From an uncultured Dysosmobacter sp. (GTDB lineage: Bacteria; Bacillota; Clostridia; Oscillospirales; Oscillospiraceae), in contig CAKUBJ010000026.1 of NCBI GenBank assembly GCA_934636905.1, positions 1-23,480 on the forward strand: a DNA stretch of 23,480 nt, written 5' to 3'. Below the pieces are notes generated by a model, which saw only the letters and a program-made list of their open reading frames with translations, did no database searches and had not been told where the DNA came from. Shown here piece by piece: positions 264 to 10,413 of the stretch. Position numbers and translations under genes: made by a program. Each line of letters begins with the position of its first letter. Position 1 is the stretch's first letter.

Positions 264-1646
264 ATGTTTGAAATGGAAAACCGTGGGGAACTGATCGAAA
301 AAATTGAGGATCTGGTTAACCGAAAACGATATACGGAACTGCGGGATCTCCTGCTGCCCATGGAGCCGGCGGACATCGCCATTCTGGCAGACGATCTGGA
401 CGACGAAAAAACCCTGCCCCTGCTGTTCCGGCTGCTGCCCAAGGAGCAGGCGGCGGAGGTGTTCGTGGAACTGGAAAGCGACCAGCAGGAACTGCTGATC
501 CGCGGCTTTTCCAACACGGAACTGAAGGAAGTGCTGGACGAGCTGTATCTGGACGATACCGTTGACATCGTGGAGGAAATGCCTGCCAACGTGGTCAAGC
601 GGATTCTCAAGCACTCCGACCCGGATATGCGCAAGAGCATCAACGAAATCCTCAAATACCCGGAGGATTCCACCGGCTCCATCATGACCACGGAGTATGT
701 GGATCTGAAGGAAACCATGACGGTGTCAGACGCCCTGAAGCGCATCCGCCGCACCGGCCCGGATAAGGAAACCATCAACGTCTGCTACGTCATTGACGAG
801 CGGCGCTGCCTCATCGGCGTTCTCTCCATCCGCACCCTGCTGCTGGCGGAGGAGGACGACATCATCGGGGACATCATGGAGCGGAACTTCATCTCCGTCC
901 GGACGCTGGACGACCAGGAGGAAACCGCTCAGGCGCTGAGCAAATACGACTTCCTGGCCCTTCCCGTGGTGGACACGGAAAACCGTCTGGTGGGCATTGT
1001 CACCGTTGACGATGCCATCGACGTTCTGCAGGAAGAAACCACGGAGGATATGGAAAAGATGGCGGCCATGCTGCCTACCGACAAGCCCTACCTCCGCACC
1101 AGCGCCTTTGAAACCTTCAAATCCCGGATTCCGTGGCTGCTGCTGCTGATGATTTCCGCCACCTTCACCGGGCAGATTATCTCCAGCTTTGAGGACGCCC
1201 TCAGCGCCTTCACCATCCTCACTGCCTATATCCCCATGCTGATGGACACCGGCGGCAACTGCGGCTCTCAGGCCAGCGTCACGGTAATCCGCGGCATCTC
1301 TCTGGGGGACATCGAGTTTTCCGACCTGCTTCAGGTGGTCTGGAAGGAGTGCCGGGTGGCGGTGCTGTGCGGCACGATTCTGGCCGGCGCCAACTTCGTC
1401 AAGCTGATGCTGCTGGACCGGCTGGTATTCCACAATCCCATCACCGTCACCGTGGCTTCCGTCATCTGCCTGACGCTGGTGTGCACGGTGTTTGCCGCCA
1501 AGATTGTAGGCTGTATGCTGCCGCTGCTGGCCAAGAAAATCGGCTTTGACCCCGCCGTCATGGCCTCCCCCTTCATCACCACCATTGTGGATGCCCTGTC
1601 CCTGCTGATTTACTTCCGCTTCGCCTCCCTGCTGCTGGGGATCTGA
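264..1646 (+). CDS. mgtE: Magnesium transporter MgtE
   Basis: This encodes a 460-residue MgtE-type Mg2+ channel/transporter of the cytoplasmic membrane. The start at 264 has AGGAGG (251-256) 7 nt upstream and gives the usual family length; an in-frame upstream extension to 57 would run through the riboswitch and is rejected. Order of domains: acidic helical MgtE N domain (about 1-130), paired CBS domains (about 138-260; GVLSIRTLLL and GIVTVDDAIDVLQEE mark the ends of the two repeats), then a membrane domain of about five helices from residue 290 on. The pore signature PMLMDTGGNCGSQAS and the aspartate in the last helix (TTIVDALSLL) are present. In the family the N and CBS domains sense cytosolic Mg2+ and close the pore. 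Placement behind an M-box fits completely. No frameshift or missing motif was seen. Confidence 0.97.
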   Translation: MFEMENRGELIEKIEDLVNRKRYTELRDLLLPMEPADIAILADDLDDEKTLPLLFRLLPKEQAAEVFVELESDQQELLIRGFSNTELKEVLDELYLDDTVDIVEEMPANVVKRILKHSDPDMRKSINEILKYPEDSTGSIMTTEYVDLKETMTVSDALKRIRRTGPDKETINVCYVIDERRCLIGVLSIRTLLLAEEDDIIGDIMERNFISVRTLDDQEETAQALSKYDFLALPVVDTENRLVGIVTVDDAIDVLQEETTEDMEKMAAMLPTDKPYLRTSAFETFKSRIPWLLLLMISATFTGQIISSFEDALSAFTILTAYIPMLMDTGGNCGSQASVTVIRGISLGDIEFSDLLQVVWKECRVAVLCGTILAGANFVKLMLLDRLVFHNPITVTVASVICLTLVCTVFAAKIVGCMLPLLAKKIGFDPAVMASPFITTIVDALSLLIYFRFASLLLGI

Positions 1647-1657
1647 CAGGCAAATTC

Positions 1658-1684
1658 AAAAGGCGTGACCTCTCGGTCACGCCT
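1658..1684. terminator. Left copy of duplicated terminator hairpin (repeat copy 1)
   Basis: AAAAGGCGTGACC / TCTC / GGTCACGCC forms a strong hairpin 10 nt after the mgtE stop codon. It is repeated at 1910-1936 with one base change. On the + strand it is followed by CAGCG of the repeat rather than by a T-tract, so as it stands it should stop mgtE transcripts poorly. On the - strand the AAAA becomes a T-tract and the hairpin should work. Confidence 0.75.
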
Positions 1685-1909
1685 CAGCGTGTCGAAAAAG
1701 TCTTTTCGCCCCGCTGAGCCAGTTTTCAGAACTTTATAAAAGTTCTGAAAACTGCAAATTTTAATGGCGCAGGACACCCCTCTTGGGTTATCTACGCGCT
1801 AAGAGCCGCCGCTTTACGGCGGTTGCGCTCCGAAACGCGCCTGCGGGCGCAGTCCCGCACACACCCTTCCTTACCGCCGCAGAGGATTTACCGCTTAATC
1901 GACAGTCTC
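1685..1909 (+). mobile_element. Terminator-associated repeat element, copy 1 (long form)
   Basis: This non-coding element starts CAGCGTGTCGAAAAAG and ends TCGACAGTCTC. The 5' end and the reverse complement of the 3' end agree at 12 of 16 positions, so the ends form weak inverted repeats. Near-identical sequence recurs at 6635-6792 and, inverted, at 8175-8336. Inside are a hairpin at 1685-1716, a stronger hairpin at 1720-1754, the conserved stretch ATGGCGCAGGACACCC, and, only in this copy, about 63 extra bases at 1790-1852 with their own hairpins. The element is flanked by direct repeats of about 27 bp that are complete terminator hairpins. No coding frame is conserved between copies, so if mobile it depends on an enzyme encoded elsewhere. 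Confidence 0.85.
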
Positions 1910-1940
1910 AAAAGGTGTGACCTCTCGGTCACGCCTTTTC
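1910..1940. terminator. Right copy of duplicated terminator hairpin (repeat copy 1)
   Basis: AAAAGGTGTGACC / TCTC / GGTCACGCC is followed by TTTTCTCTGTTCTT on the + strand and preceded by AAAA. It is therefore a good bidirectional terminator for mgtE arriving from the left and for the aldolase gene (stop at 1981) arriving from the right. One base (T1916) differs from the left copy. Confidence 0.85.
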
Positions 1941-1980
1941 TCTGTTCTTATCTTATTCATCTTTCCGGCACGCCGGCTTC

Positions 1981-2631
1981 TCACTTTTTGGGCTGGCCGT
2001 AGGTTCGGAAGCGTTCCAGCGCCTCCTCCATCTGGCTGTCTGACAGGATATGGGGTGTTCCCGCCGCCATGGCCCGCCACTGAAGTTCCGCCGTAAATTC
2101 CAAATCCCGTGCCAGGGCGAATGCCTTCGGCAGGCTCTCCTCCCAGACCACCAGACCGTGGTTGGCCAGCAGCACCGCCTTTCCGTCTCCGCAGGTGTCC
2201 ACGGCGGCTTCCGCCAGCGCTGGTGTGCCGAACAGGCGGTAGGGTGCCACCGGCACCCGGGGCACCCCGGCGGCGGCAATGGCGTAATGCACCGCCTCCA
2301 GCGGCCGGCCGAGGCAGGCCAGCACCGTACAGTACACGGAATGGGTATGAATCACCGCCCGGGCTTCCGGGTGGCGGCGGTAGAAGCCCCCGTGCAGCGC
2401 CCACTCGCTGGTGGGCTTCCGCGCCCCCTCCGTTTCATGGCCGTCGGGGGTCATCAGGACAATGTCCGCCGGGGTAATGGCTTCATATTCCATCCCGGAG
2501 GGGGTAACGGCCATGACCCCCTCCTCCGGCACATAGACGCTGAGGTTCCCGCTGGTGCCCACGGACAGCCCCGCCTGGCTCATCCGGCGGCCGTATTCCG
2601 CCAGCAGGCTCCGTTCCCGTTCCAGCTTCAC
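1981..2631 (-). CDS. Class II aldolase/adducin family protein
   Basis: This is a 216-residue cytoplasmic protein of the FucA/AraD-like class II aldolase family, whose members are Zn-dependent and cleave or epimerise sugar phosphates such as L-fuculose-1-phosphate or L-ribulose-5-phosphate. Visible marks are GTSGNLS (about 25-31), the SEW segment with the likely catalytic Glu76, the metal-binding HTH pair (His95, His97) and a third histidine in LANHGLV (His158). I chose the GTG start at 2631: its GTGA overlaps the trkH stop codon, and GGAGGGAGGGG lies just upstream. An ATG at 2670 would give 13 more residues and a longer overlap. The coupling to trkH implies shared transcription, but an aldolase has no obvious role in K+ uptake. 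The substrate cannot be told from the sequence. Confidence 0.9.
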   Translation of the reverse strand: MKLERERSLLAEYGRRMSQAGLSVGTSGNLSVYVPEEGVMAVTPSGMEYEAITPADIVLMTPDGHETEGARKPTSEWALHGGFYRRHPEARAVIHTHSVYCTVLACLGRPLEAVHYAIAAAGVPRVPVAPYRLFGTPALAEAAVDTCGDGKAVLLANHGLVVWEESLPKAFALARDLEFTAELQWRAMAAGTPHILSDSQMEEALERFRTYGQPKK

Positions 2632-4094
2632 AGGTTCCCCTCCCTCCTTTTCAGGCGGCTGCCCCGCCACAGGGAGGGGGCAAACAGCAGCAGCATGGGG
2701 AAAATTTCCAGCCGCCCCGCCAGCATATCAAAACTCAGCAGCAGCTTGGACGCCGGCGAAAATGCGGCGAAGCTGCCCATGGGGCCTACCATGCCCAGCC
2801 CGGGCCCGATGTTGTTGATGCAGGAGGCCAGCGCCGTAAAGGTGGACAGCAGGTCAAAGCCCTCCAGACTCAGCAGCAGCCATGAAATGCCAAACAGCAG
2901 CATATACAGGGAGAAATAGGCCTGCACGCCCCGCACCTGCTTTTCCGGCAGGGCGCGGCCCTCCATCCGCACCCGGATGACTGCGTTGGGGTGCAGCATT
3001 TTTCTCATGTCCGCAAAGGCCGCCTTGGCCATGGTCACAATCCGCGTTACCTTCAGGCCGCCGCCGGTGGAGCCGGCGCAGCCGCCGATGAACATCAGCA
3101 GCACCAGCACCGTTTTGGCATAGCCCGGCCACTGGTCGAAATTCACCGTGGCGTAGCCTGTTGTGGTGATGATGGAGGAAACCTGAAAGAACGCGTGCCG
3201 CAGGGAGGTGCCGACGCTGCCGTAAATATGCAGGATATTGGCGGCAATGGTGACGGTGGAGAATCCCACAATCCCCAGATAGGCCCACAGTTCCTCGGAT
3301 TTCAGCACATCCCGGAAGCGCCCCGCCAGCAGGAAGAAGTACAGGTTGAAGTTCACGCCGAAAGCCAGCATTCCCACGCCGGTCACAATGTCCAGATAGG
3401 TGCTCTCATAGGCGCCGATGCTCAGCGCCCGGCTGGAAAAGCCGCCGGTGCCGGCGGTGCCGAAGGCGTGGACGCAGGCGTCAAAGAGATTCATGCCTCC
3501 CAGAAGCAGCAGGAGAATCATCACCGCCGTCATGGCAAAATAGATGCCATAGAGGATTTTGGCGGTGTCGCTCATGCGGCTCACCAGCTTCCCCGCCGTG
3601 GGACCGGGCATTTCCGCCCGGAGGATGTGCATGGTGTGGCCGTCGCTCATGGGCAGGATGGCCATCACAAACACCAGCACGCCCATGCCGCCTACCCAGT
3701 GGGTAAAGCTCCGCCACAGCAATCCGCTCCGGCTGAGAATCTCCACATCCGTCAGAATGGATGCACCGGTGGTGGTAAAGCCGGAAACCGTTTCAAAAAA
3801 CGCATCCACATAGTGGGGAATGTCCCCGCTGAGCACAAAGGGCAGCGCCCCGAAGGCCGACATCAGAATCCATGCCAGCGCCACGGCGGCGAAGCCGTCC
3901 CGGGCGTAGAGGGCGGTGCGCTCCGGGCGGCGCCGGCTCAGCAGCCCGCCCCACAGCACCAGCAGCCCCATGGTCACCAGCCACGGCAGCAGGGATTCCC
4001 CGTACAGCAGCGCCGTCACCAGCGGCAGCACCAGCAGTCCCGCCTCCGTCAGCAGAATCCGCCCCAGCACGAAGCCAATCATCCGTAAATTCAT
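2628..4094 (-). CDS. trkH: Potassium uptake protein TrkH (membrane pore subunit)
   Basis: This is a 488-residue integral membrane protein of the TrkH/KtrB superfamily and forms the ion pore of the Trk K+ uptake system. The fourfold pore-loop pattern is readable: SGFTTTGASIL, GTAGTGGFSS, SSIITTTGYATVNF and SCINNIGPGLG, each holding the filter glycine. The chain starts MNLRMIGFVLGRILL, already hydrophobic as is usual in TrkH. Length is normal for TrkH (about 480-490). It lies 12 bp downstream of trkA, its gating partner, in the same direction, and its stop codon overlaps the next start. All four filter glycines are intact, so an active transporter is likely. Confidence 0.96.
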   Translation of the reverse strand: MNLRMIGFVLGRILLTEAGLLVLPLVTALLYGESLLPWLVTMGLLVLWGGLLSRRRPERTALYARDGFAAVALAWILMSAFGALPFVLSGDIPHYVDAFFETVSGFTTTGASILTDVEILSRSGLLWRSFTHWVGGMGVLVFVMAILPMSDGHTMHILRAEMPGPTAGKLVSRMSDTAKILYGIYFAMTAVMILLLLLGGMNLFDACVHAFGTAGTGGFSSRALSIGAYESTYLDIVTGVGMLAFGVNFNLYFFLLAGRFRDVLKSEELWAYLGIVGFSTVTIAANILHIYGSVGTSLRHAFFQVSSIITTTGYATVNFDQWPGYAKTVLVLLMFIGGCAGSTGGGLKVTRIVTMAKAAFADMRKMLHPNAVIRVRMEGRALPEKQVRGVQAYFSLYMLLFGISWLLLSLEGFDLLSTFTALASCINNIGPGLGMVGPMGSFAAFSPASKLLLSFDMLAGRLEIFPMLLLFAPSLWRGSRLKRREGNL

Positions 4095-4106
4095 GGCCGC
4101 CCCCTC

Positions 4107-5474
4107 TTATTCCGGCATCAGGATATCGTGGATATCCTGAAGAGCGGCGTCCTGGGTGACGACGATGACGTCATCCCCCACGCAGATGGTGTCGCTGCCG
4201 CCGGGAATCAGGATTTCCCCGTTCCGGCGGACAATCCCGGCAATCAGCACGCCGGGCTTCAGCTTCAAGTCCCGCAGAGGCGTATCCGCCAGCGTCACGT
4301 CTCCGTCCACATGAAATTCCAGTGCCTCCACGGCGCCCCCCACCAGCCGGTGCAGGGTCTTGATCCGGGAACCGGCGGCGCACTCCATGGCCCGGATGTA
4401 CTGGACAATCAGTTCCGTGGTCACGTCCCGGGCGGACACCACGCTGTCGATCATCCCCTCGCTGCTGACCAGATCCATCAGGGAGCGGCGGTTGATTTTG
4501 GCCACCACCTTGCACCCCTCCGTCTGCCGGGAAGCGCAGATGGCCATGAGGATGTTGGCCTCGTCGATGCCCGTCAGCGCCACAAAGGCGTCCGTCTGCT
4601 CGATGCCCTCCTCCGCCAGCAGTTCGCTGTCGGTGCCGTCCCCCATAATCACCAGCGCCCGGGGCAGCTGCTCGCTGATTTGAGTGCAGCGGCTCTCGTT
4701 CTGGTCGATGATTTTCACGCGCATTCCCATGTGCAGCAGTTCGTCCGCCAGATAGTAGCACATCTTGCTGGCGCCCACAATCATCACCGTGGAGGCCTTC
4801 TTCCGGAACACTCCCAGATACTGGAAAAAGGCGGACAGCTGATCCGGCGCAGCGGTAACGTAAATCTTGTCCCCGCTGCTGAGCTGGAAATCGCCGGAGG
4901 GAATGGTGGTTTCCCCCTTCCGGGACACGGCGCAGATCAGCACCCGCGCCCGGGCGTTCTTGTAGAGATCCAGCAGGCGCACGCCGTGAAGGGCGGAGCC
5001 TTCCGGCAGGCGGTATTCCACCAGTTCCAGCCGCCCCTTGGAAAAGGACTCCAGCTTCATGGCCGCCGGGAAGCGCAGCACACGGGCAATCTCATGAGCC
5101 GCTGCCTTTTCCGGATTGATGGACATGGTCAGCCCCAGTTCCCCCCGCATGAAGCGCAGCTGCGTTTCATACTCCGGGTTGCGGATCCGGGCGATGGTGT
5201 GTGCCACCCCCAGCTTCTTCGCCACAAGACAGGCCAGAATATTGATTTCGTCGCTGGAGGTGGTGGCAATCAGCAGGTCGGCCCGGCCCACCTCCGCCTC
5301 CTTCTGTACCTCGTAGCTGGCGCCGTTGCCGCAGACACCCATGACATCATACACATTGATGATATTCTCAATCAGGCGCGGCTCCTGATCGATGACCGTA
5401 ACGCGGTGCTCCCGGATCAGCTGGGCGGCAAGGCTTGTGCCCACCTTGCCCGCGCCTACAATGATGATCTGCAT
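4107..5474 (-). CDS. trkA: Trk system potassium uptake protein TrkA (regulatory subunit)
   Basis: This is a 455-residue peripheral membrane protein that binds NAD(H)/nucleotide and gates TrkH. It has the doubled layout of classical TrkA: RCK/TrkA-N Rossmann fold 1 starting IIIVGAGKVGTSLAAQL, a TrkA-C domain around residues 140-220 (LELVEYRLPEGSAL), Rossmann fold 2 starting VMIVGASKMCYYLADELL near residue 230, and a final TrkA-C domain ending near the C terminus. The second nucleotide loop has a Cys where the third glycine of GxGxxG is expected, so that half may bind nucleotide differently. The start at 5474 has GGAAAGGAG upstream; the open frame extends to 5621 but the extra residues have no family counterpart. 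A good promoter lies just upstream. Confidence 0.96.
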   Translation of the reverse strand: MQIIIVGAGKVGTSLAAQLIREHRVTVIDQEPRLIENIINVYDVMGVCGNGASYEVQKEAEVGRADLLIATTSSDEINILACLVAKKLGVAHTIARIRNPEYETQLRFMRGELGLTMSINPEKAAAHEIARVLRFPAAMKLESFSKGRLELVEYRLPEGSALHGVRLLDLYKNARARVLICAVSRKGETTIPSGDFQLSSGDKIYVTAAPDQLSAFFQYLGVFRKKASTVMIVGASKMCYYLADELLHMGMRVKIIDQNESRCTQISEQLPRALVIMGDGTDSELLAEEGIEQTDAFVALTGIDEANILMAICASRQTEGCKVVAKINRRSLMDLVSSEGMIDSVVSARDVTTELIVQYIRAMECAAGSRIKTLHRLVGGAVEALEFHVDGDVTLADTPLRDLKLKPGVLIAGIVRRNGEILIPGGSDTICVGDDVIVVTQDAALQDIHDILMPE

Positions 5475-5517
5475 ACTGCTCCTTTCCGGCTTCTGTGCCG
5501 TCCGTCTGGTTTCGTCG

Positions 5518-5546
5518 ATGATAACCCGGCGCCGCCGCCATGGCAA
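5518..5546 (-). promoter_or_regulatory. Sigma-A type promoter for the trkA-trkH-aldolase operon
   Basis: On the minus strand TTGCCA (5541-5546) and TATCAT (5518-5523) are separated by exactly 17 bp. Transcription would start about 35 nt upstream of the trkA start codon. No operator-like repeat was noticed around it. Confidence 0.7.
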
Positions 5547-5562
5547 GCCCTCTCCGGGATTC

Positions 5563-6504
5563 TTAACGGAAAATTTCCTCCGGGATCCGGATATCCTCCT
5601 TCGGCACCTTCTCCCAGTCAAAGTCCGCCAGCAGCGCCGCCGGCGTTTTGGGAGCCGCCGAGGGATTGAAGCCCGCCAGAAACGCCAGCCGCCCCAGAAT
5701 CTCCTCCGGAGGCAACTGCTGCAGGCTGTCCAGCCCCACGGAGCCGTCCCGCTTGGAAAGGCGCTTTCCCTCCGCCGTCAGCAGCAGGGGGAAGTGCCGG
5801 AACCGGGGCGGCGTCAGCCCCAGCAGATGGTAAAGATACAGCTGCCGGGGGGTGGAGGAGAGCAGGTCGGCCCCCCGCACCACCTCCGTCACGCCCATGG
5901 CGGCGTCGTCCGCCACCACGGCCAGCTGATAGGCAAACATCCCGTCCGACCGCCGCAGGAGGAAATCCCCGCAGTCCGCCGCCAGATTTTCCTCATACCA
6001 TCCCATATGGCCGTCCTGAAAGCCCCATACCTCCTCCGGTACCTTCAGGCGCAGGGCAGGGCGGCGGTGTCTGCTCTTTTCCGCAATCTCCGCCGCCGTC
6101 AGGCAGCGGCAGGTGCCGGCGTAAACCGCCTGCCCATCCTCCCGATGAGGGGCGGAGGCGGCGTGCAGTTCTGCCCGGGTGCAGAAGCAGGGGTAAACCA
6201 GCCCCATCCCCTGCAATTTTTCCAGCGCCGCCTGATAAAACGCGGTGCGCTCACTCTGATAATACGGCCCCGTCCCGCCGTCCTTTCCGGGGCCCATGTC
6301 CCAGTCCAGTCCCAGCCACTGCAAATCCCGCTCCAGCTGTTCCCCATAGCGGCGGGGACAGCGGGCGGTATCCAAATCCTCCACCCGCAGCAGAACCTTT
6401 CCCCCCGCCTGCCGGGCGGAAAGCCATACCAGCAGGGCGCACAGCAGGTTGCCCAGATGCAGCCGTCCGCTGGGAGAGGGGGCAAACCGTCCCACCGTTT
6501 CCAT
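5563..6504 (-). CDS. gluQ: Glutamyl-Q tRNA(Asp) synthetase (GluQRS, YadB family)
   Basis: This is a 313-residue truncated paralogue of glutamyl-tRNA synthetase without the anticodon-binding domain. The family attaches activated glutamate to the queuosine base at position 34 of tRNA(Asp) rather than to the tRNA end. The class I signatures are present: HLGN (His16-Asn19) as the HIGH motif and KRLSK (247-251) as the KMSKS motif. The zinc site CFC (Cys106, Cys108), Tyr128 and Cys132 is typical of GluQRS. The start has GGAGGGG upstream and the product length is normal (about 290-315). It has its own promoter and no operon partner. The presence of the gene implies that the organism makes or salvages queuosine. 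Confidence 0.95.
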   Translation of the reverse strand: METVGRFAPSPSGRLHLGNLLCALLVWLSARQAGGKVLLRVEDLDTARCPRRYGEQLERDLQWLGLDWDMGPGKDGGTGPYYQSERTAFYQAALEKLQGMGLVYPCFCTRAELHAASAPHREDGQAVYAGTCRCLTAAEIAEKSRHRRPALRLKVPEEVWGFQDGHMGWYEENLAADCGDFLLRRSDGMFAYQLAVVADDAAMGVTEVVRGADLLSSTPRQLYLYHLLGLTPPRFRHFPLLLTAEGKRLSKRDGSVGLDSLQQLPPEEILGRLAFLAGFNPSAAPKTPAALLADFDWEKVPKEDIRIPEEIFR

Positions 6505-6539
6505 ATGCGCCCCTCCTTCCGGGCATTCTATCTGGTGCG

Positions 6540-6568
6540 ATTATACTCCTTTCCCCTCCCCAAGGCAA
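6540..6568 (-). promoter_or_regulatory. Sigma-A type promoter for gluQRS
   Basis: On the minus strand TTGCCT (6563-6568), a 17-bp spacer and a perfect TATAAT (6540-6545) lie about 35 bp upstream of the gluQRS start codon. Confidence 0.75.
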
Positions 6569-6604
6569 GTACTCCCGCAGGCCGGTTTCAGATATTCGGA
6601 AAAG

Positions 6605-6634
6605 CAAAGGCCGGAACGCGTTACGTTCCGGCCT
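6605..6634. terminator. Left copy of duplicated terminator hairpin (repeat copy 2)
   Basis: CAAAGGCCGGAACGCG / TTACGTTCCGGCCT forms a long GC-rich hairpin. The same 30 bp recur at 6793-6822 with one change, in the loop (A6623 versus G6811). Read on the minus strand it is followed by TTTGCTTTT, so it is the better terminator of the pair for transcripts coming from the metallo-hydrolase gene. Confidence 0.75.
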
Positions 6635-6792
6635 CAGCGTGTCGAAAAAGTCTTTTCGCCCCGCTGAGCCTGTCTTCAGAACTTTATAAAGTTCTGAAGA
6701 CAGTAGATTTTAATGGCGCAGGACACCCCTCTTTGGTTTCCCGCGCACACTCTTCCTTACCGCTAAGGGAAAATCTAACGCTTTATCGACAA
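6635..6792 (+). mobile_element. Terminator-associated repeat element, copy 2 (short form)
   Basis: This 158-bp copy aligns with copy 1 from the first base (CAGCGTGTCGAAAAAG) to the last part (TTTATCGACA), but lacks the 63-bp block of copy 1 and ends a few bases short of the TCGACAGTCTC terminus. Its central hairpin reads CTGTCTTCAGAACTTT and AAAGTTCTGAAGACAG. Two base pairs differ from the other copies, with both sides changed so that pairing is kept. It lies between the end of the metallo-hydrolase gene and the start of gluQRS, inside a 405-bp gene-free stretch. The rest of that stretch holds only the gluQRS promoter and plain sequence (6823-6909). Confidence 0.85.
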
Positions 6793-6822
6793 CAAAGGCC
6801 GGAACGCGTTGCGTTCCGGCCT
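6793..6822. terminator. Right copy of duplicated terminator hairpin (repeat copy 2)
   Basis: A 30-bp near-identical copy of 6605-6634. On the minus strand it is the first hairpin met after the metallo-hydrolase stop codon and is followed by TTTGTTGTC, a moderate T-tract. Confidence 0.75.
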
Positions 6823-6909
6823 GCATCTGCTGAATAATCTGTCAAATCATTGCATTGTGCGTTCCGCGGCTCCGGGCTTTGCCGCTTCGGCATCCATCCT
6901 CCGTCCCGG

Positions 6910-7863
6910 TTACTCGATTTCCAGATGGACGGTTTCATGGAACTGCGGCTCCACCAGACCGGGCAGTTCCACGGCGTCGGTGAAGTACAGGTTCTTCACA
7001 TACTGCTGCAGCAGGGACACCACATAGGGGTGGGGGCGCTCGTCCGGGCGCCGGGCAGCCACCGTCACCACCGCCGTTTCCGGCCGGAGTTTTTCCAGCA
7101 GCTTCCGGGATGTGGAGTCAAAAGAGGCGTGGTGGGGCACCTTGAGAATGTCGCAGGGGGTCAGGTTCACCGTTTCCCACACATGGGCATAGGCATCGCC
7201 CCCCAACACGATTTCCTTCCCGTGGTAATACAGCCGCTGGCGCAGGGAGCACACGTTCATGGACTTCGCCCAGCGCACCAGATCGTAGCCGTTCTGCTCC
7301 CCGGCGTAGGCGGCGTCGTAGATCTCCTTCTGCCGCCGGTACAGCGCCGGCTCCCCGCAGAGGATGTCCATCCTCAGTGCCGGGGTCAGCTGAAGGGACA
7401 CGGTTTCCGTCCCCGGCAGCAGGCGGAAGCGTTCAATCCGTCCCGGGTGGGTCTGCAATGCCCGGGTGTAAAGCTGGATGCACAGGAGGGCGTTTTTCGC
7501 AGCCTTGGGCAGGCCGTTATCCGGCCGGAGCGGCTCCAGATCCGGGACGTTTTCCGGCGGCAGATAGGTGGTGACAAACTCCCCCACCGTCACCGCGTCC
7601 AGCACCCGGCCAAGGCCGCCGATGTGATCCCGGTGGAAGTGGGTGGCCAGTGCCAGATCCAGATGCTCCACGCCCAGCTTCCGCAGGAAGTCCCCGGCGT
7701 AAATCCGCCGGGAGCGGGGATCCAGTTCCCCCGGATGGTCGTCCCGCACCAGACAGTCGTGGCCGAAGTCCACCATCATGGCAAAGTCCTGCCGCCCGTC
7801 GTTGATTTCCCGGATGAGAATGGAGTCGCCGTTGCCCACGTTGATAAAGTCCAAAGCCAGCAT
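6910..7863 (-). CDS. Stand-alone ComEC/Rec2-like metallo-beta-lactamase-fold hydrolase
   Basis: This is a 317-residue soluble protein of the metallo-beta-lactamase superfamily. The metal-binding motif HFHRDHIGGL (about residues 96-105) follows the typical first strand FINVGNGDSILI, and later blocks LGGDAYAHVW and VPHHASFDS match the ComEC-like group, in which the C-terminal enzyme domain of the DNA channel has this fold. No membrane helices or signal peptide are present, so it is not the competence channel itself. Members of this group are suspected nucleases or phosphodiesterases; the substrate is unknown. The start at 7863 has GGGAGGGG upstream. The upstream region is only 32 bp long before a foldback repeat begins, and no normal promoter was found there, so expression may depend on that repeat or be weak. 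Confidence 0.85.
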   Translation of the reverse strand: MLALDFINVGNGDSILIREINDGRQDFAMMVDFGHDCLVRDDHPGELDPRSRRIYAGDFLRKLGVEHLDLALATHFHRDHIGGLGRVLDAVTVGEFVTTYLPPENVPDLEPLRPDNGLPKAAKNALLCIQLYTRALQTHPGRIERFRLLPGTETVSLQLTPALRMDILCGEPALYRRQKEIYDAAYAGEQNGYDLVRWAKSMNVCSLRQRLYYHGKEIVLGGDAYAHVWETVNLTPCDILKVPHHASFDSTSRKLLEKLRPETAVVTVAARRPDERPHPYVVSLLQQYVKNLYFTDAVELPGLVEPQFHETVHLEIE

Positions 7864-7895
7864 ATACAGTTCCCCTCCCGTTTGGTTGTTCTAAC

Positions 7896-8060
7896 GATAC
7901 CATCGATTGACAAGGGCAGACACGGTTTTGCCGGAGCAGAAATGTGCCCAGGCAAGGAAAGACCCGCAGGGAATACTGCCGTATTCTCAAGGGGCTTGAC
8001 GCGGTATGGGGACATTTCTGCCCGTCAAAACCGTGTCTGCCCTTGTCAATCGATGGTATC
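7896..8060. mobile_element. Foldback (MITE-like) element with 35-bp perfect inverted ends
   Basis: GATACCATCGATTGACAAGG and the next 15 bases (7896-7930) are the exact reverse complement of 8026-8060. Pairing continues inside with GCAGAAATGT (left) against ACATTTCTGC (right), and the centre holds a small hairpin GAATAC/GTATTC. The 165-bp unit has no coding frame. It shares nothing with the terminator-associated repeats nearby. No target duplication is clear (CTAAC on the left, ATACC on the right). Non-autonomous transposon remains the simplest reading; a large structured RNA or DNA cruciform site is an alternative. Confidence 0.8.
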
Positions 8061-8143
8061 ATACCGCGTGAACGTTTACAATGGGGAATCCAAGGCTGTG
8101 CCTGCCAAAAATTTTTACAGGATTTTGACGGTTTTCACAAGAA

Positions 8144-8174
8144 CGCCGGAAAGGAGCGCTGCTCCTTTCCGGCG
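8144..8174. terminator. Left copy of duplicated terminator-like hairpin (repeat copy 3)
   Basis: CGCCGGAAAGGAGCG / CTGCTCCTTTCCGGCG is a nearly perfect palindrome of 31 bp, identical to 8337-8367. On the minus strand it is followed by GTTCTTGTG, a weak T-tract. It would be the far terminator for the 626-residue membrane protein gene. Confidence 0.65.
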
Positions 8175-8336
8175 GAGACTGTCGATAAAGTGGTAAGTTT
8201 TCTGCAACGGTAAGGAAGGGTGTGCGCGGGAAACCCAAGAAGGGTGTCCTGCGCCATTCAAACCTACAGTTTTCAGAACTTTTGTAAAGTTCTGAAAACT
8301 GGTTCAGCGGGGCGAAAAGACTTTTTCGACACGCTG
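8175..8336 (-). mobile_element. Terminator-associated repeat element, copy 3 (inverted)
   Basis: This 162-bp copy lies in opposite orientation to copies 1 and 2. Read on the minus strand it starts CAGCGTGTCGAAAAAG at 8336 and ends TCGACAGTCTC at 8175, matching the ends of copy 1. It lacks the 63-bp block, so the short form is probably ancestral. The flanking 31-bp hairpins are identical to each other and unrelated to those of the other loci. It lies in the 546-bp gap between the unknown membrane protein gene and the metallo-hydrolase gene. Apart from this and the foldback element, I see only plain sequence at 8061-8143. Confidence 0.85.
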
Positions 8337-8367
8337 CGCCGGAAAGGAGCGCTGCTCCTTTCCGGCG
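8337..8367. terminator. Right copy of duplicated terminator-like hairpin (repeat copy 3)
   Basis: Identical to 8144-8174. It is the first hairpin met by transcripts leaving the gene that stops at 8410. On the minus strand it is followed directly by CAGCG of the repeat, with no T-tract, as at copy 1. Confidence 0.65.
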
Positions 8368-8369
8368 TT

Positions 8370-8402
8370 CAACGTGTTAAAATGTCGTTTCGCTCCGCCG
8401 GT
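8370..8402 (+). repeat. Possible decayed 5' end of the same repeat family
   Basis: The sequence CAACGTGTTAAAATGTC then GTTTCGCTCCGCCGG aligns with the first 33 bases of the repeat at 25 positions with one gap. It starts two bases after the hairpin at 8337-8367 and points the other way from copy 3. It could be the remnant of an older insertion at the same hairpin, but it is short and chance cannot be excluded. Confidence 0.35.
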
Positions 8403-8409
8403 TCGGTTC

Positions 8410-10290
8410 TTATGCCGTCTGCTCTGTCCCGGAAGCCTGCGGAGCCGTTTCCGCCGGAAGTGCCGTGCTGGTGTCAGTCTCCGGCTCCCCCGTTTCGTTT
8501 TCCGCCGCAGGCGCCGCCGGCGGGGCGGCAACGGCCCGGTTGTCCACCTCAATTTTCTGCGCCGTAATCCACTGGGTGCCGCTCCTCCAGTAAACGGTAA
8601 CGGTGTCCCCCACGTTCAGCAGCGGGGCTTCCGGCACCTGCGCGGCGCTGACGTACACGGAGAATCCGCTCTCTCCCTCAAAGCGGAGGTAGTAGACGCT
8701 GGTGCCCTCAATGACGGCGCTGCGGATTTCCACAATGGTGCCCTTCGTCTCCCAAAGTTCCTGCTCCTCCGCCGGCACCTCGGCGTCGGCACCGTCAATG
8801 ATGCCATTATTCAGCAGGGTTTTCCGGTAGTTTTCCTCGCAGTCCGCCACGGTCTGGCCGGTTTCCACGATGTTGTACTGCTGGACATTCACCATGGCGT
8901 ACATCTTCACCAGACCGTCCTCACCCTTCAAAGCCATAAAGTAGGTGGGCTGGTCGGCGATATTCAGCAGCAGGGGGAAGGTGGCGGAATAGCGCATCTG
9001 CTGCACCTGACTCTGGGCGGAACTCTTCGCCGAGGTTTCCGTGGCGCCGGCGCAGGGATAGAACCGGGTTTCCTTGGTCCGCTGGTTGGTGAGGATAAAG
9101 CCGATGTTGGACTGGTCGCTGGTAACGGAGGTCACGCCGGTGTACATATACACATCGTCATTGATGGCGATATAGTTCCAGCCGTCCGTGGTCAGCGTCA
9201 CGTCCCGCTGCCCCAGATAGGCGTTGAGGAAGCCGTTGTGGTACTGGCCGTAATAGTCGTACTGCTCCATGATGATGTCGGAGGAGTACAGGCGGTCTAC
9301 CCAGGTGGGCACATCCTCATAATATTGGCTCTCACCGCTGACGGCGTTCACCAGCACCGCCCCCTGAATGTCCGTGCCGCCGAAGAGGCCGATGCGCTTG
9401 ACAATCCGTGGGCACACCCAGTAGGGGGTGCCCTCCTCGTCAATCTCAAACACCGGGTCGTCGAACATCATGGTGGGATAGCGGAACCGCAGGTGACGGT
9501 AGAGATTCCGGCTGAAGTGCTCCGCCGTGGTGTACTTCATGCCCTCGTCCAGCCGCACCACCTCCGCCTCCTGGGTCACCATGTCGATAACCAGGTAGGC
9601 CGGCAGGCCGTTGGCGCGGTTGGTAAACCACTTGATGATGTCCCCGTAGGCCAGACTGGTGACCCGGACGGGACGTCCCTTATAGTTGATCTGGGTGTAG
9701 TTGGGGAGAATCTCAAACTGGGACACCATGTCCGCCAGTTCCCCCAGCTTCCGGCTGCCCAGCCGGGCGGCGGAGTCGCTGTCCAGCATGGGAATCTGGT
9801 CGTAGCGAATCTCCTCCACCTCCGAGGCGAAGTCGCCGGTGGTCAAAGGCAGGAGCCTGCTGTAGGCCCCGGCCCGCAGCACCACCCAGGAGGCAATGGA
9901 GCCTACGGCAATGGCGGCAATCAGGGCAATGACCACAAAAAAGGGAACCGTACACTGCTTTTTCACAAACCGGAAGTATCCGCCGGCGCCGGTGCCCTGA
10001 AAACCGGAGGTCAGCACCGCGCAGCCGCAGTACACGGCGCACAGCAGGAAGAGGAAGAAGTAAAATTCCTCCGCATGGGGATTCAGCGCCGGCAGTTCCA
10101 GATAGAAGAACACCAGCCCCACCACCGCCGTGACGGCAAGATTGATAAGCGTCCGGGTAAAGGGCGTCCCGATGGGTTTCCGGGGCTTCCGCTCCCGCTG
10201 AGGGCGCTGGGTATAGTCCGGCTGCGGTTCCTGACCGCCGGGCTGCCAGCCGCCGGGATTGAAGCCGCCGAAGTTGAAAATAAATGGCAT
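8410..10290 (-). CDS. Membrane protein of unknown function (626 residues)
   Basis: I do not recognise a named family with confidence. The chain has a short Gly/Pro-rich, then basic, cytoplasmic start (1-45), three hydrophobic helices at about 46-65, 74-94 and 115-138, and a long probably extracytoplasmic part (about 140-580) rich in Tyr and aromatic residues. The tail from about 585 on is low-complexity Ala/Pro/Glu/Thr. A late segment (LLNVGDTVTVYWRSG) looks like a small beta-barrel or SH3-like domain. The start at 10290 begins MPFIFNFGGF and has GGAAAGGAA upstream; the frame is open to 10413 but that part overlaps the promoter. It is transcribed alone. A role at the cell surface is inferred from topology only. 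Confidence 0.8.
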   Translation of the reverse strand: MPFIFNFGGFNPGGWQPGGQEPQPDYTQRPQRERKPRKPIGTPFTRTLINLAVTAVVGLVFFYLELPALNPHAEEFYFFLFLLCAVYCGCAVLTSGFQGTGAGGYFRFVKKQCTVPFFVVIALIAAIAVGSIASWVVLRAGAYSRLLPLTTGDFASEVEEIRYDQIPMLDSDSAARLGSRKLGELADMVSQFEILPNYTQINYKGRPVRVTSLAYGDIIKWFTNRANGLPAYLVIDMVTQEAEVVRLDEGMKYTTAEHFSRNLYRHLRFRYPTMMFDDPVFEIDEEGTPYWVCPRIVKRIGLFGGTDIQGAVLVNAVSGESQYYEDVPTWVDRLYSSDIIMEQYDYYGQYHNGFLNAYLGQRDVTLTTDGWNYIAINDDVYMYTGVTSVTSDQSNIGFILTNQRTKETRFYPCAGATETSAKSSAQSQVQQMRYSATFPLLLNIADQPTYFMALKGEDGLVKMYAMVNVQQYNIVETGQTVADCEENYRKTLLNNGIIDGADAEVPAEEQELWETKGTIVEIRSAVIEGTSVYYLRFEGESGFSVYVSAAQVPEAPLLNVGDTVTVYWRSGTQWITAQKIEVDNRAVAAPPAAPAAENETGEPETDTSTALPAETAPQASGTEQTA

Positions 10291-10384
10291 AGCCGTATTC
10301 CTTTCCGCAGATACACTGCCTCCCGCCCGGGAGCATGATTCCGCCTTCCCGGGGGATGGCGGGCGTTTCCCCGCCGCTGATATG

Positions 10385-10413
10385 ATGATAGCACCGGAAT
10401 GTGAACAAATCAA
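10385..10413 (-). promoter_or_regulatory. Sigma-A type promoter for the 626-residue membrane protein gene
   Basis: On the minus strand TTGATT (10408-10413) and TATCAT (10385-10390) are 17 bp apart. The leader to the start at 10290 is about 85-90 nt and contains a GC-rich stretch with inverted GGCGGGG/CCCGCC-like segments near 10320-10375. Confidence 0.7.

What the first reader, a model, noticed from the sequence alone, without database searches (positions are those of the whole stretch)
1658..8367. Small repeat family that sits inside terminators and duplicates the complete hairpin
The sequence shows three copies of a non-coding element (1685-1909, 6635-6792, inverted 8175-8336). Each is bounded exactly by two copies of a hairpin of 27, 30 and 31 bp. 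The two hairpins of one locus are identical or differ at one base; hairpins of different loci are unrelated. All cores start at the same base (CAGCGTGTCGAAAAAG), copies 1 and 3 end in TCGACAGTCTC, and the ends form a weak inverted repeat. The straightforward reading is insertion into a gene-end hairpin with duplication of the whole target. Target duplications of about 27 bp are rare; from memory, IS1202-type elements make duplications of this size, so a transposase of that sort might act in trans. I know of no described mini-element whose duplication is a whole terminator.
Basis: partly seen in the sequence, partly recalled or inferred. Interest (0 to 1): 0.85.

Follow-up and report, generated by a model that had tools for sequence, protein, structure and literature searches.

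The report
Mini-transposons that duplicate whole terminators
Small non-coding mobile elements in gut bacteria insert at the foot of the stem-loops that end genes and leave a complete copy of the stem-loop on each side, so the neighbouring genes may keep their stop signals.

Summary
Three 158-225 bp non-coding elements each sit between two copies of one hairpin of 27, 30 or 31 bp. Related Oscillospiraceae genomes hold many more. Of 115 left ends, 92 abut a hairpin (random positions 112 of 4000). Of 91 ends with room for a right side, 57 have a flanking direct repeat above all 273 controls. In 53 measurable copies the duplication is 21-38 bp and is the palindrome itself.

Best reading: MITEs of a palindrome-targeting clade of IS1182-family insertion sequences, not IS1202. 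Of 16 full-length IS1182-family elements with similar ends, 12 have the same hairpin on both sides. Two natural filled/empty pairs of such elements show one hairpin becoming two. One MITE-filled locus has a syntenic single-hairpin site in another species. Wan et al. [quoted passage not shown]

New as far as searched: the MITE family, a duplication length that follows the target, and the proposed sharing-out of terminator tails. Against: 30 of 87 ends lack the duplication; the window host's partner IS was not found.

The parts
1658..1684 (.). Left hairpin copy of element 1 (27 bp)
   Evidence: scores as a minus-strand terminator, 1685-1660
1685..1909 (+). Element 1 core, 225 bp, non-coding MITE-like
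   Evidence: relatives
1910..1936 (.). Right hairpin copy of element 1 (27 bp, 1 mismatch)
   Evidence: scores as a plus-strand terminator, 1910-1939
6605..6634 (.). Left hairpin copy of element 2 (30 bp)
   Evidence: minus-strand terminator-like, 6635-6607
6635..6792 (+). Element 2 core, 158 bp; right end degenerate
6793..6822 (.). Right hairpin copy of element 2 (30 bp, 1 mismatch)
   Evidence: minus-strand terminator-like, 6822-6796
8144..8174 (.). Hairpin copy of element 3 (31 bp)
   Evidence: minus-strand terminator-like, 8174-8144
8175..8336 (-). Element 3 core, 162 bp, inverted
8337..8367 (.). Other hairpin copy of element 3 (31 bp, identical)

Best explanation
The three elements are non-autonomous copies (MITEs) of a palindrome-targeting clade of IS1182-family insertion sequences. 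A transposase supplied in trans joins the two element ends at the two feet of a gene-end palindrome, probably extruded as a cruciform. Gap repair copies the whole arm, so each insertion ends up between two complete hairpins. The duplication therefore has no fixed length: it follows the palindrome (21-38 bp seen). Because the element enters between stem and tail, the two hairpin copies can keep one tail each. Shown by sequence: the duplications, their identity with the palindrome, single-hairpin empty sites, IS1182-family relatives with the same habit. Inferred: movement in trans by such a transposase, the cruciform intermediate, working termination after insertion.
For: Direct repeats in 57 of 91 ends, control maximum 11.6. 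Duplication equals the palindrome: complementary fraction 0.764 at the true edge, 0.25-0.39 with the left edge shifted 1-6 bases; 49 of 53 palindromic with slack, 47 of 5000 random. Full-length IS1182-family elements: same hairpin on both sides in 12 of 16 with both ends recognised (4 of the 16, of which 3 of the 12, are copies in one genome, G439) and in 4 of 8 plasmid or phage relatives. MITE left end matches 7 such elements at 13-17 of 18 bases. Filled/empty pairs Javan87/Javan90 and pELF_AA94/pELF_AA55. MITE locus L319 with an exact 27-bp duplication and syntenic empty locus L328 with one hairpin. One supported transposase clade holds the hairpin inserters (100/100).
Against: 30 of 87 true ends lack the repeat: 12 have a left hairpin only, 18 have none on the left (by eye); L330 at the same mgtE end has one hairpin only. 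The MITE right end matches the IS right ends at only 11-12 of 18 bases. No full-length clade member was found in 18 MITE-bearing drafts and 2 records, so the partner is inferred. RNAfold stem spans did not track the duplication better than permutation, and the first length estimate correlated only weakly (0.38). The filled/empty pairs are of autonomous relatives, not of this MITE. No experiment bears on the cruciform.
Confidence: 0.85

Rival explanations
1. An IS1202-type transposase with a long duplication of roughly fixed length (about 24-29 bp, recalled) made these insertions.
For: The window's duplications of 27-31 bp are near that range.
Against: Range is 21-38 bp and follows the palindrome. 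The one ISNCY_1 hit in 10 genomes or records has unrelated ends. Similar ends and the same duplication occur on IS1182-family elements.
Confidence: 0.04
2. The hairpins belong to the element as its own ends and are exchanged or copied between loci, rather than being duplicated target.
For: The hairpins are always at the element edge where present; 3 of 16 full-length elements carry different hairpins on the two sides, as recombination between copies would give.
Against: Empty sites already hold the locus's own single hairpin. Hairpins of different loci are unrelated.
Confidence: 0.03
3. Stem-loop replacement as in IS1272: the target hairpin is lost, and the paired hairpins arose otherwise.
For: IS1272, an IS1182-family member, replaces its target (PMC5678879). 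Some MITE ends have no hairpin or one.
Against: Two copies of the same hairpin remain in 57 of 87 true ends.
Confidence: 0.03
4. The clade and the duplication are right, but the transposase reads an unpaired single strand (replication or transcription) or a bound protein at terminators, not a cruciform in duplex DNA.
For: Sequence alone cannot tell these states apart; insertion sites look like transcribed terminators: 34 of 57 have 4 or more T in the 8 bases after the right copy, random 382 of 5000.
Against: Joining at both feet with a stem-dependent gap is simplest at a four-way junction (inference; model in PMC5678879).
Confidence: 0.3

Closest known systems
IS1272 and TnSha1 (IS1182 family, staphylococci)
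   Same: Family; targets are stem-loops of unrelated sequence, several confirmed as terminators (PMC5678879 sections 22 and 24 and passages; PMC4923244 passages).
   Different: They delete or replace the stem-loop and leave no duplication; here the whole stem-loop is duplicated. Duplication was drawn there only as a possible branch (Fig 13, pathway b).
ISCbo5 / ISBma2 (IS1182 family)
   Same: All sites but one are hairpins at gene ends, read as transcription stop signals (PMC3098183 section 15).
   Different: That section does not say whether the hairpin is duplicated; the elements are full-length IS, not MITEs.
ISEfa7-like element of plasmid pELF_AA94 and IS1182-family elements of Streptococcus phages
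   Same: Whole-hairpin duplication of 24-30 bp, with empty sites for two.
   Different: Autonomous; ends such as CAGACTGTAGACAAAG differ somewhat from the MITE ends.
IS1182-related MITEs of Methanosarcina acetivorans (ISMac2)
   Same: 160 and 169 bp non-autonomous elements ascribed to an IS1182 partner, 14 and 7 copies (PMC3852290 table passage).
   Different: By my reading of the table's last column, direct repeats of 4 and 0 bp; no hairpin duplication in the passage seen.

Membership tests
MITE of an IS1182-family clade | Short, without a transposase gene, repeated | tested here: met
   158-225 bp; 3 copies in the window; 115 left ends in the loci read
MITE of an IS1182-family clade | Terminal sequences shared with an autonomous partner | tested here: inconclusive
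   Left end 13-17 of 18, right end 11-12 of 18 against 7 full-length elements; no partner found in the same genomes
MITE of an IS1182-family clade | Same target choice and duplication as the partner clade | tested here: met
MITE of an IS1182-family clade | Mobilised by that transposase in trans | not testable with these tools
   Needs a transposition assay
IS1202-type element (definition recalled) | Related transposase associated with these ends | tested here: not met
   One ISNCY_1 hit in 10 genomes or records, ends unrelated
IS1202-type element (definition recalled) | Long duplication of about 24-29 bp | tested here: not met
   21-38 bp, following the palindrome
IS1272-type stem-loop replacement | Target stem-loop lost, no duplication | tested here: not met
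   57 of 87 true ends keep two copies; some of the other 30 could fit

The most novel reading that the evidence does not exclude
In this transposase clade the length of the target duplication is not set by the protein but read from the target: the enzyme joins both ends at the junction of an extruded cruciform, so the stagger equals the stem-loop. Insertion into a two-way terminator splits it into two one-way terminators that insulate the element, and each duplicated hairpin can be hit again, which makes terminators renewable safe harbours.
Probability: 0.55. Interest if true: 0.75.

Novelty: new variant of a known kind. Interest (0 to 1): 0.62.

Why it matters
Target duplication length is normally close to a constant of a transposase. 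Here it ranges from 21 to 38 bp and follows the target palindrome, as a cruciform-junction mechanism predicts and as Wan et al. 2017 could only draw as an untested branch. Dozens of natural insertions, two exact filled/empty pairs and a syntenic MITE pair make it directly testable. It also suggests how a parasite can enter gene-end terminators in large numbers without destroying them, and that some hairpins reported before ISBma2-type transposase genes (PMC2965389 passages) may be copies of host terminators.

Tried and rejected
IS1202 (ISNCY_1) as source: one hit, in G002, with unrelated ends. NF033551 in the first 10 genomes or records gave two weak matches in G002 and no partner; the partner class appeared only in 250 family genomes. 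IMG/VR scans: one element (L001) and 26 further loci with the 16-mer but, by eye, no element body or flanking hairpin. RNAfold on reconstructed sites overshot the stem because A and T tracts pair; its statistic (10 of 55 within 4 bases, permutation mean 8.6) does not support the length rule and was replaced by the edge-shift test. That test used 53 of 57 copies; 4 without a recognised right end were dropped (L055, one copy in L157, L170, window copy 2). The first tree held two rows that I judge wrong-frame (L224, L237) and was rebuilt. There the label needs 3 changes because L227 and L205 were labelled as without hairpin inside the clade; L227 has two different hairpins by eye, L205 seems truncated. 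Flanks of the 11 rows outside the clade were not examined for hairpins. Rfam: no match at 1400-8500. The tail-sharing idea fits window copies 1 and 3, but both hairpins of copy 2 score on the minus strand. Gene order next to window copy 2 was not kept in the 30 metallo-hydrolase loci read.

Literature: the Siguier review is not held; 'IS1182 direct repeats 0-60 bp' is recalled. PMC10969869 has no mention of IS1182; PMC3196728 lists an IS1182 element with 4-bp repeats. 'Not found in print' rests, open-access papers only, seen as listings plus passages named here.
Full report
Observation. The cores share a left end that folds on itself, an internal A+T-rich hairpin and a right end TCGACAGTCTC (degenerate in copy 2). 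Copy 1 lies between convergent genes, MgtE-like (57-1646 +) and class II aldolase (1981-2670 -). Copy 2 lies downstream of a metallo-hydrolase (6910-7863 -), copy 3 downstream of the ORF 8410-10413 (-).

Host and spread. No whole genome is held for the window. One exact-pattern scan of the GTDB genome collection gave 23 loci, labelled Oscillibacter, Avoscillospira, Ruminococcaceae, Clostridia or Clostridiales. The copy-2 core matched 10 of 10 genomes or records behind such loci (35, 41 and 40 matches in G002, G003 and G005, capped lists) and 13 of 200 genomes of the family of G002. In the genus of G006 (an Oscillibacter MAG) rows matching the element part appear for 26 of 86 genomes, counted by eye from a cut listing. 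The window's mgtE is up to 83% identical there.

Statistics. Of 153 matches to the left end, 15 lacked the element's second arm and 19 were reverse-strand artefacts; 4 more artefacts were recognised by eye, leaving 115. Of these, 92 have a hairpin ending within 6 bases, against 112 of 4000 random positions. Of 91 ends with more than 330 bases downstream, 57 carry a flanking direct repeat; scores are 14.8 or more, or 8.8 or less, with nothing between, and 273 flank-swap controls reach 11.6. Without the 4 artefacts it is 57 of 87. Of the other 30, 12 have a hairpin on the left only and 18 none there. Some of these have arms of a palindrome on opposite sides (L078, L179) or a short repeat (L095, 7 bp) (by eye).

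The duplication is the palindrome. In 53 copies with a recognised right end it is 21-38 bp. The complementary fraction is 0.764 at the true edge and 0.25-0.39 with the left edge shifted by 1-6 bases; with slack 49 of 53 are palindromic against 47 of 5000 random stretches. A fixed stagger would not give this. Two cruder measures were weaker: correlation of an over-extended repeat length with palindrome span 0.38, and RNAfold spans no better than permutation. At 34 of 57 sites there are 4 or more T in the 8 bases after the right copy (random 382 of 5000), as at intrinsic terminators.

Source. IS1182-family transposases (NF033551) occur at E <= 1e-20 in 52 of 250 family genomes, 23 above cut-off; relatives of one of them (L190) at E <= 1e-50 in 21 of 394 order genomes. 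Among these loci 16 distinct full-length elements have recognisable ends on both sides: 12 have the same hairpin on both sides, 3 different hairpins, 1 a hairpin on one side (L226, L236, L239 and L240 share one genome). Of 8 plasmid or phage relatives read, 4 have the same hairpin on both sides, 2 different ones, 1 is cut by the record end, 1 shows none. The MITE left end agrees with seven of the elements at 13-17 of 18 bases, the right end at 11-12 of 18. A clade of 25 transposases with 100/100 support holds all 23 rows labelled as hairpin inserters; the 11 rows outside were not examined for hairpins. In 18 MITE-bearing genomes and 2 records no full-length clade member was found, only fragments or distant matches in three drafts.

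Empty sites. Phage Javan87 has the IS between two copies of AACCGCTCTCTTAATCGAGGGCGGTT; phage Javan90, identical over the 1505 bases compared, has one. Plasmids pELF_AA94 and pELF_AA55 show the same for AAACGATGCCTATTTAGCATCGTTT. For the MITE, 50 mgtE loci of the genus were read. Two carry a MITE at the gene end: L319, with an exact 27-bp duplication, and L330, with one hairpin. Of the other 48, 44 have a hairpin and none a duplicated one within 420 nt. L328 has one hairpin corresponding to that of L319 and the same right-hand neighbour (alignment score 102, maximum 41 in 200 shuffles). In 30 metallo-hydrolase loci, 29 have a hairpin after the gene, none is duplicated, and none has the MITE there.

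Mechanism. Shown: whole-palindrome duplication of variable length by an IS1182-family clade and by the MITEs. Inferred: strand transfer at the two 5' feet of a cruciform, whose junction keeps both joints close whatever the stem length, then gap repair through the arms. Wan et al. (PMC5678879, Discussion passage) drew this as pathway b, while IS1272 itself replaces the stem-loop (sections 22 and 24). In window copy 1 the left hairpin scores as a terminator on the minus strand and the right one on the plus strand; copy 3 fits for its minus-strand gene; in copy 2 both score on the minus strand. Over 44 ungapped pairs of hairpins, 508 of 533 stem pairs are unchanged, 17 differ by a wobble-type change, 4 changed on both sides and still pair, 4 are broken.

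Known and new. Hairpin or terminator targeting by IS1182-family members is published (PMC3098183 section 15; PMC4923244 passages), as are IS1182-related MITEs in an archaeon (PMC3852290 passage). A survey reports IS1182 over-represented between convergent genes (PMC9208149 passage), which fits. Not found in the listed searches: a MITE family whose duplication is a whole terminator, or a demonstration that duplication length follows the stem-loop. I call it a new variant of a known kind.

Noticed in passing
window 7896-7930 and 8026-8060: A perfect 35-bp inverted repeat with about 95 bp between its arms, upstream of the metallo-hydrolase gene and unrelated to the elements described.
   Followed up: no
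L170 (G132), minus strand from about position 1470 to 1885: Three copies of one hairpin with two elements between them: either a second insertion into a duplicated hairpin or a tandem duplication.
   Followed up: partly
L164, L172, L176 (G132) and L084, L089, L092 (G002): Elements of about 202-206 bp, in L172 and L176 with a different interior (begins CAGTGTGTCAAAAAAGCC or similar), also between hairpin copies: perhaps a second MITE family.
   Followed up: partly
window 1685-1909, L001, L179, L183: Copy 1 has an extra stretch of about 65 bp absent from copies 2 and 3; similar stretches occur in L001, L179 and L183, so there is a longer form of the element.
   Followed up: no
L226 (G439) and L277 (plasmid pTVN of Thermocaproicibacter melissae): Identical IS1182-family transposases; the right hairpin of L226 equals the left hairpin of L277 while the left hairpin of L226 differs, as if the plasmid and a chromosomal copy had recombined.
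   Followed up: no
L078, L179, L095, L075: Elements without flanking hairpins: two have palindrome arms on opposite sides, two have short 5-7 bp repeats, so other insertion modes exist (by eye).
   Followed up: no
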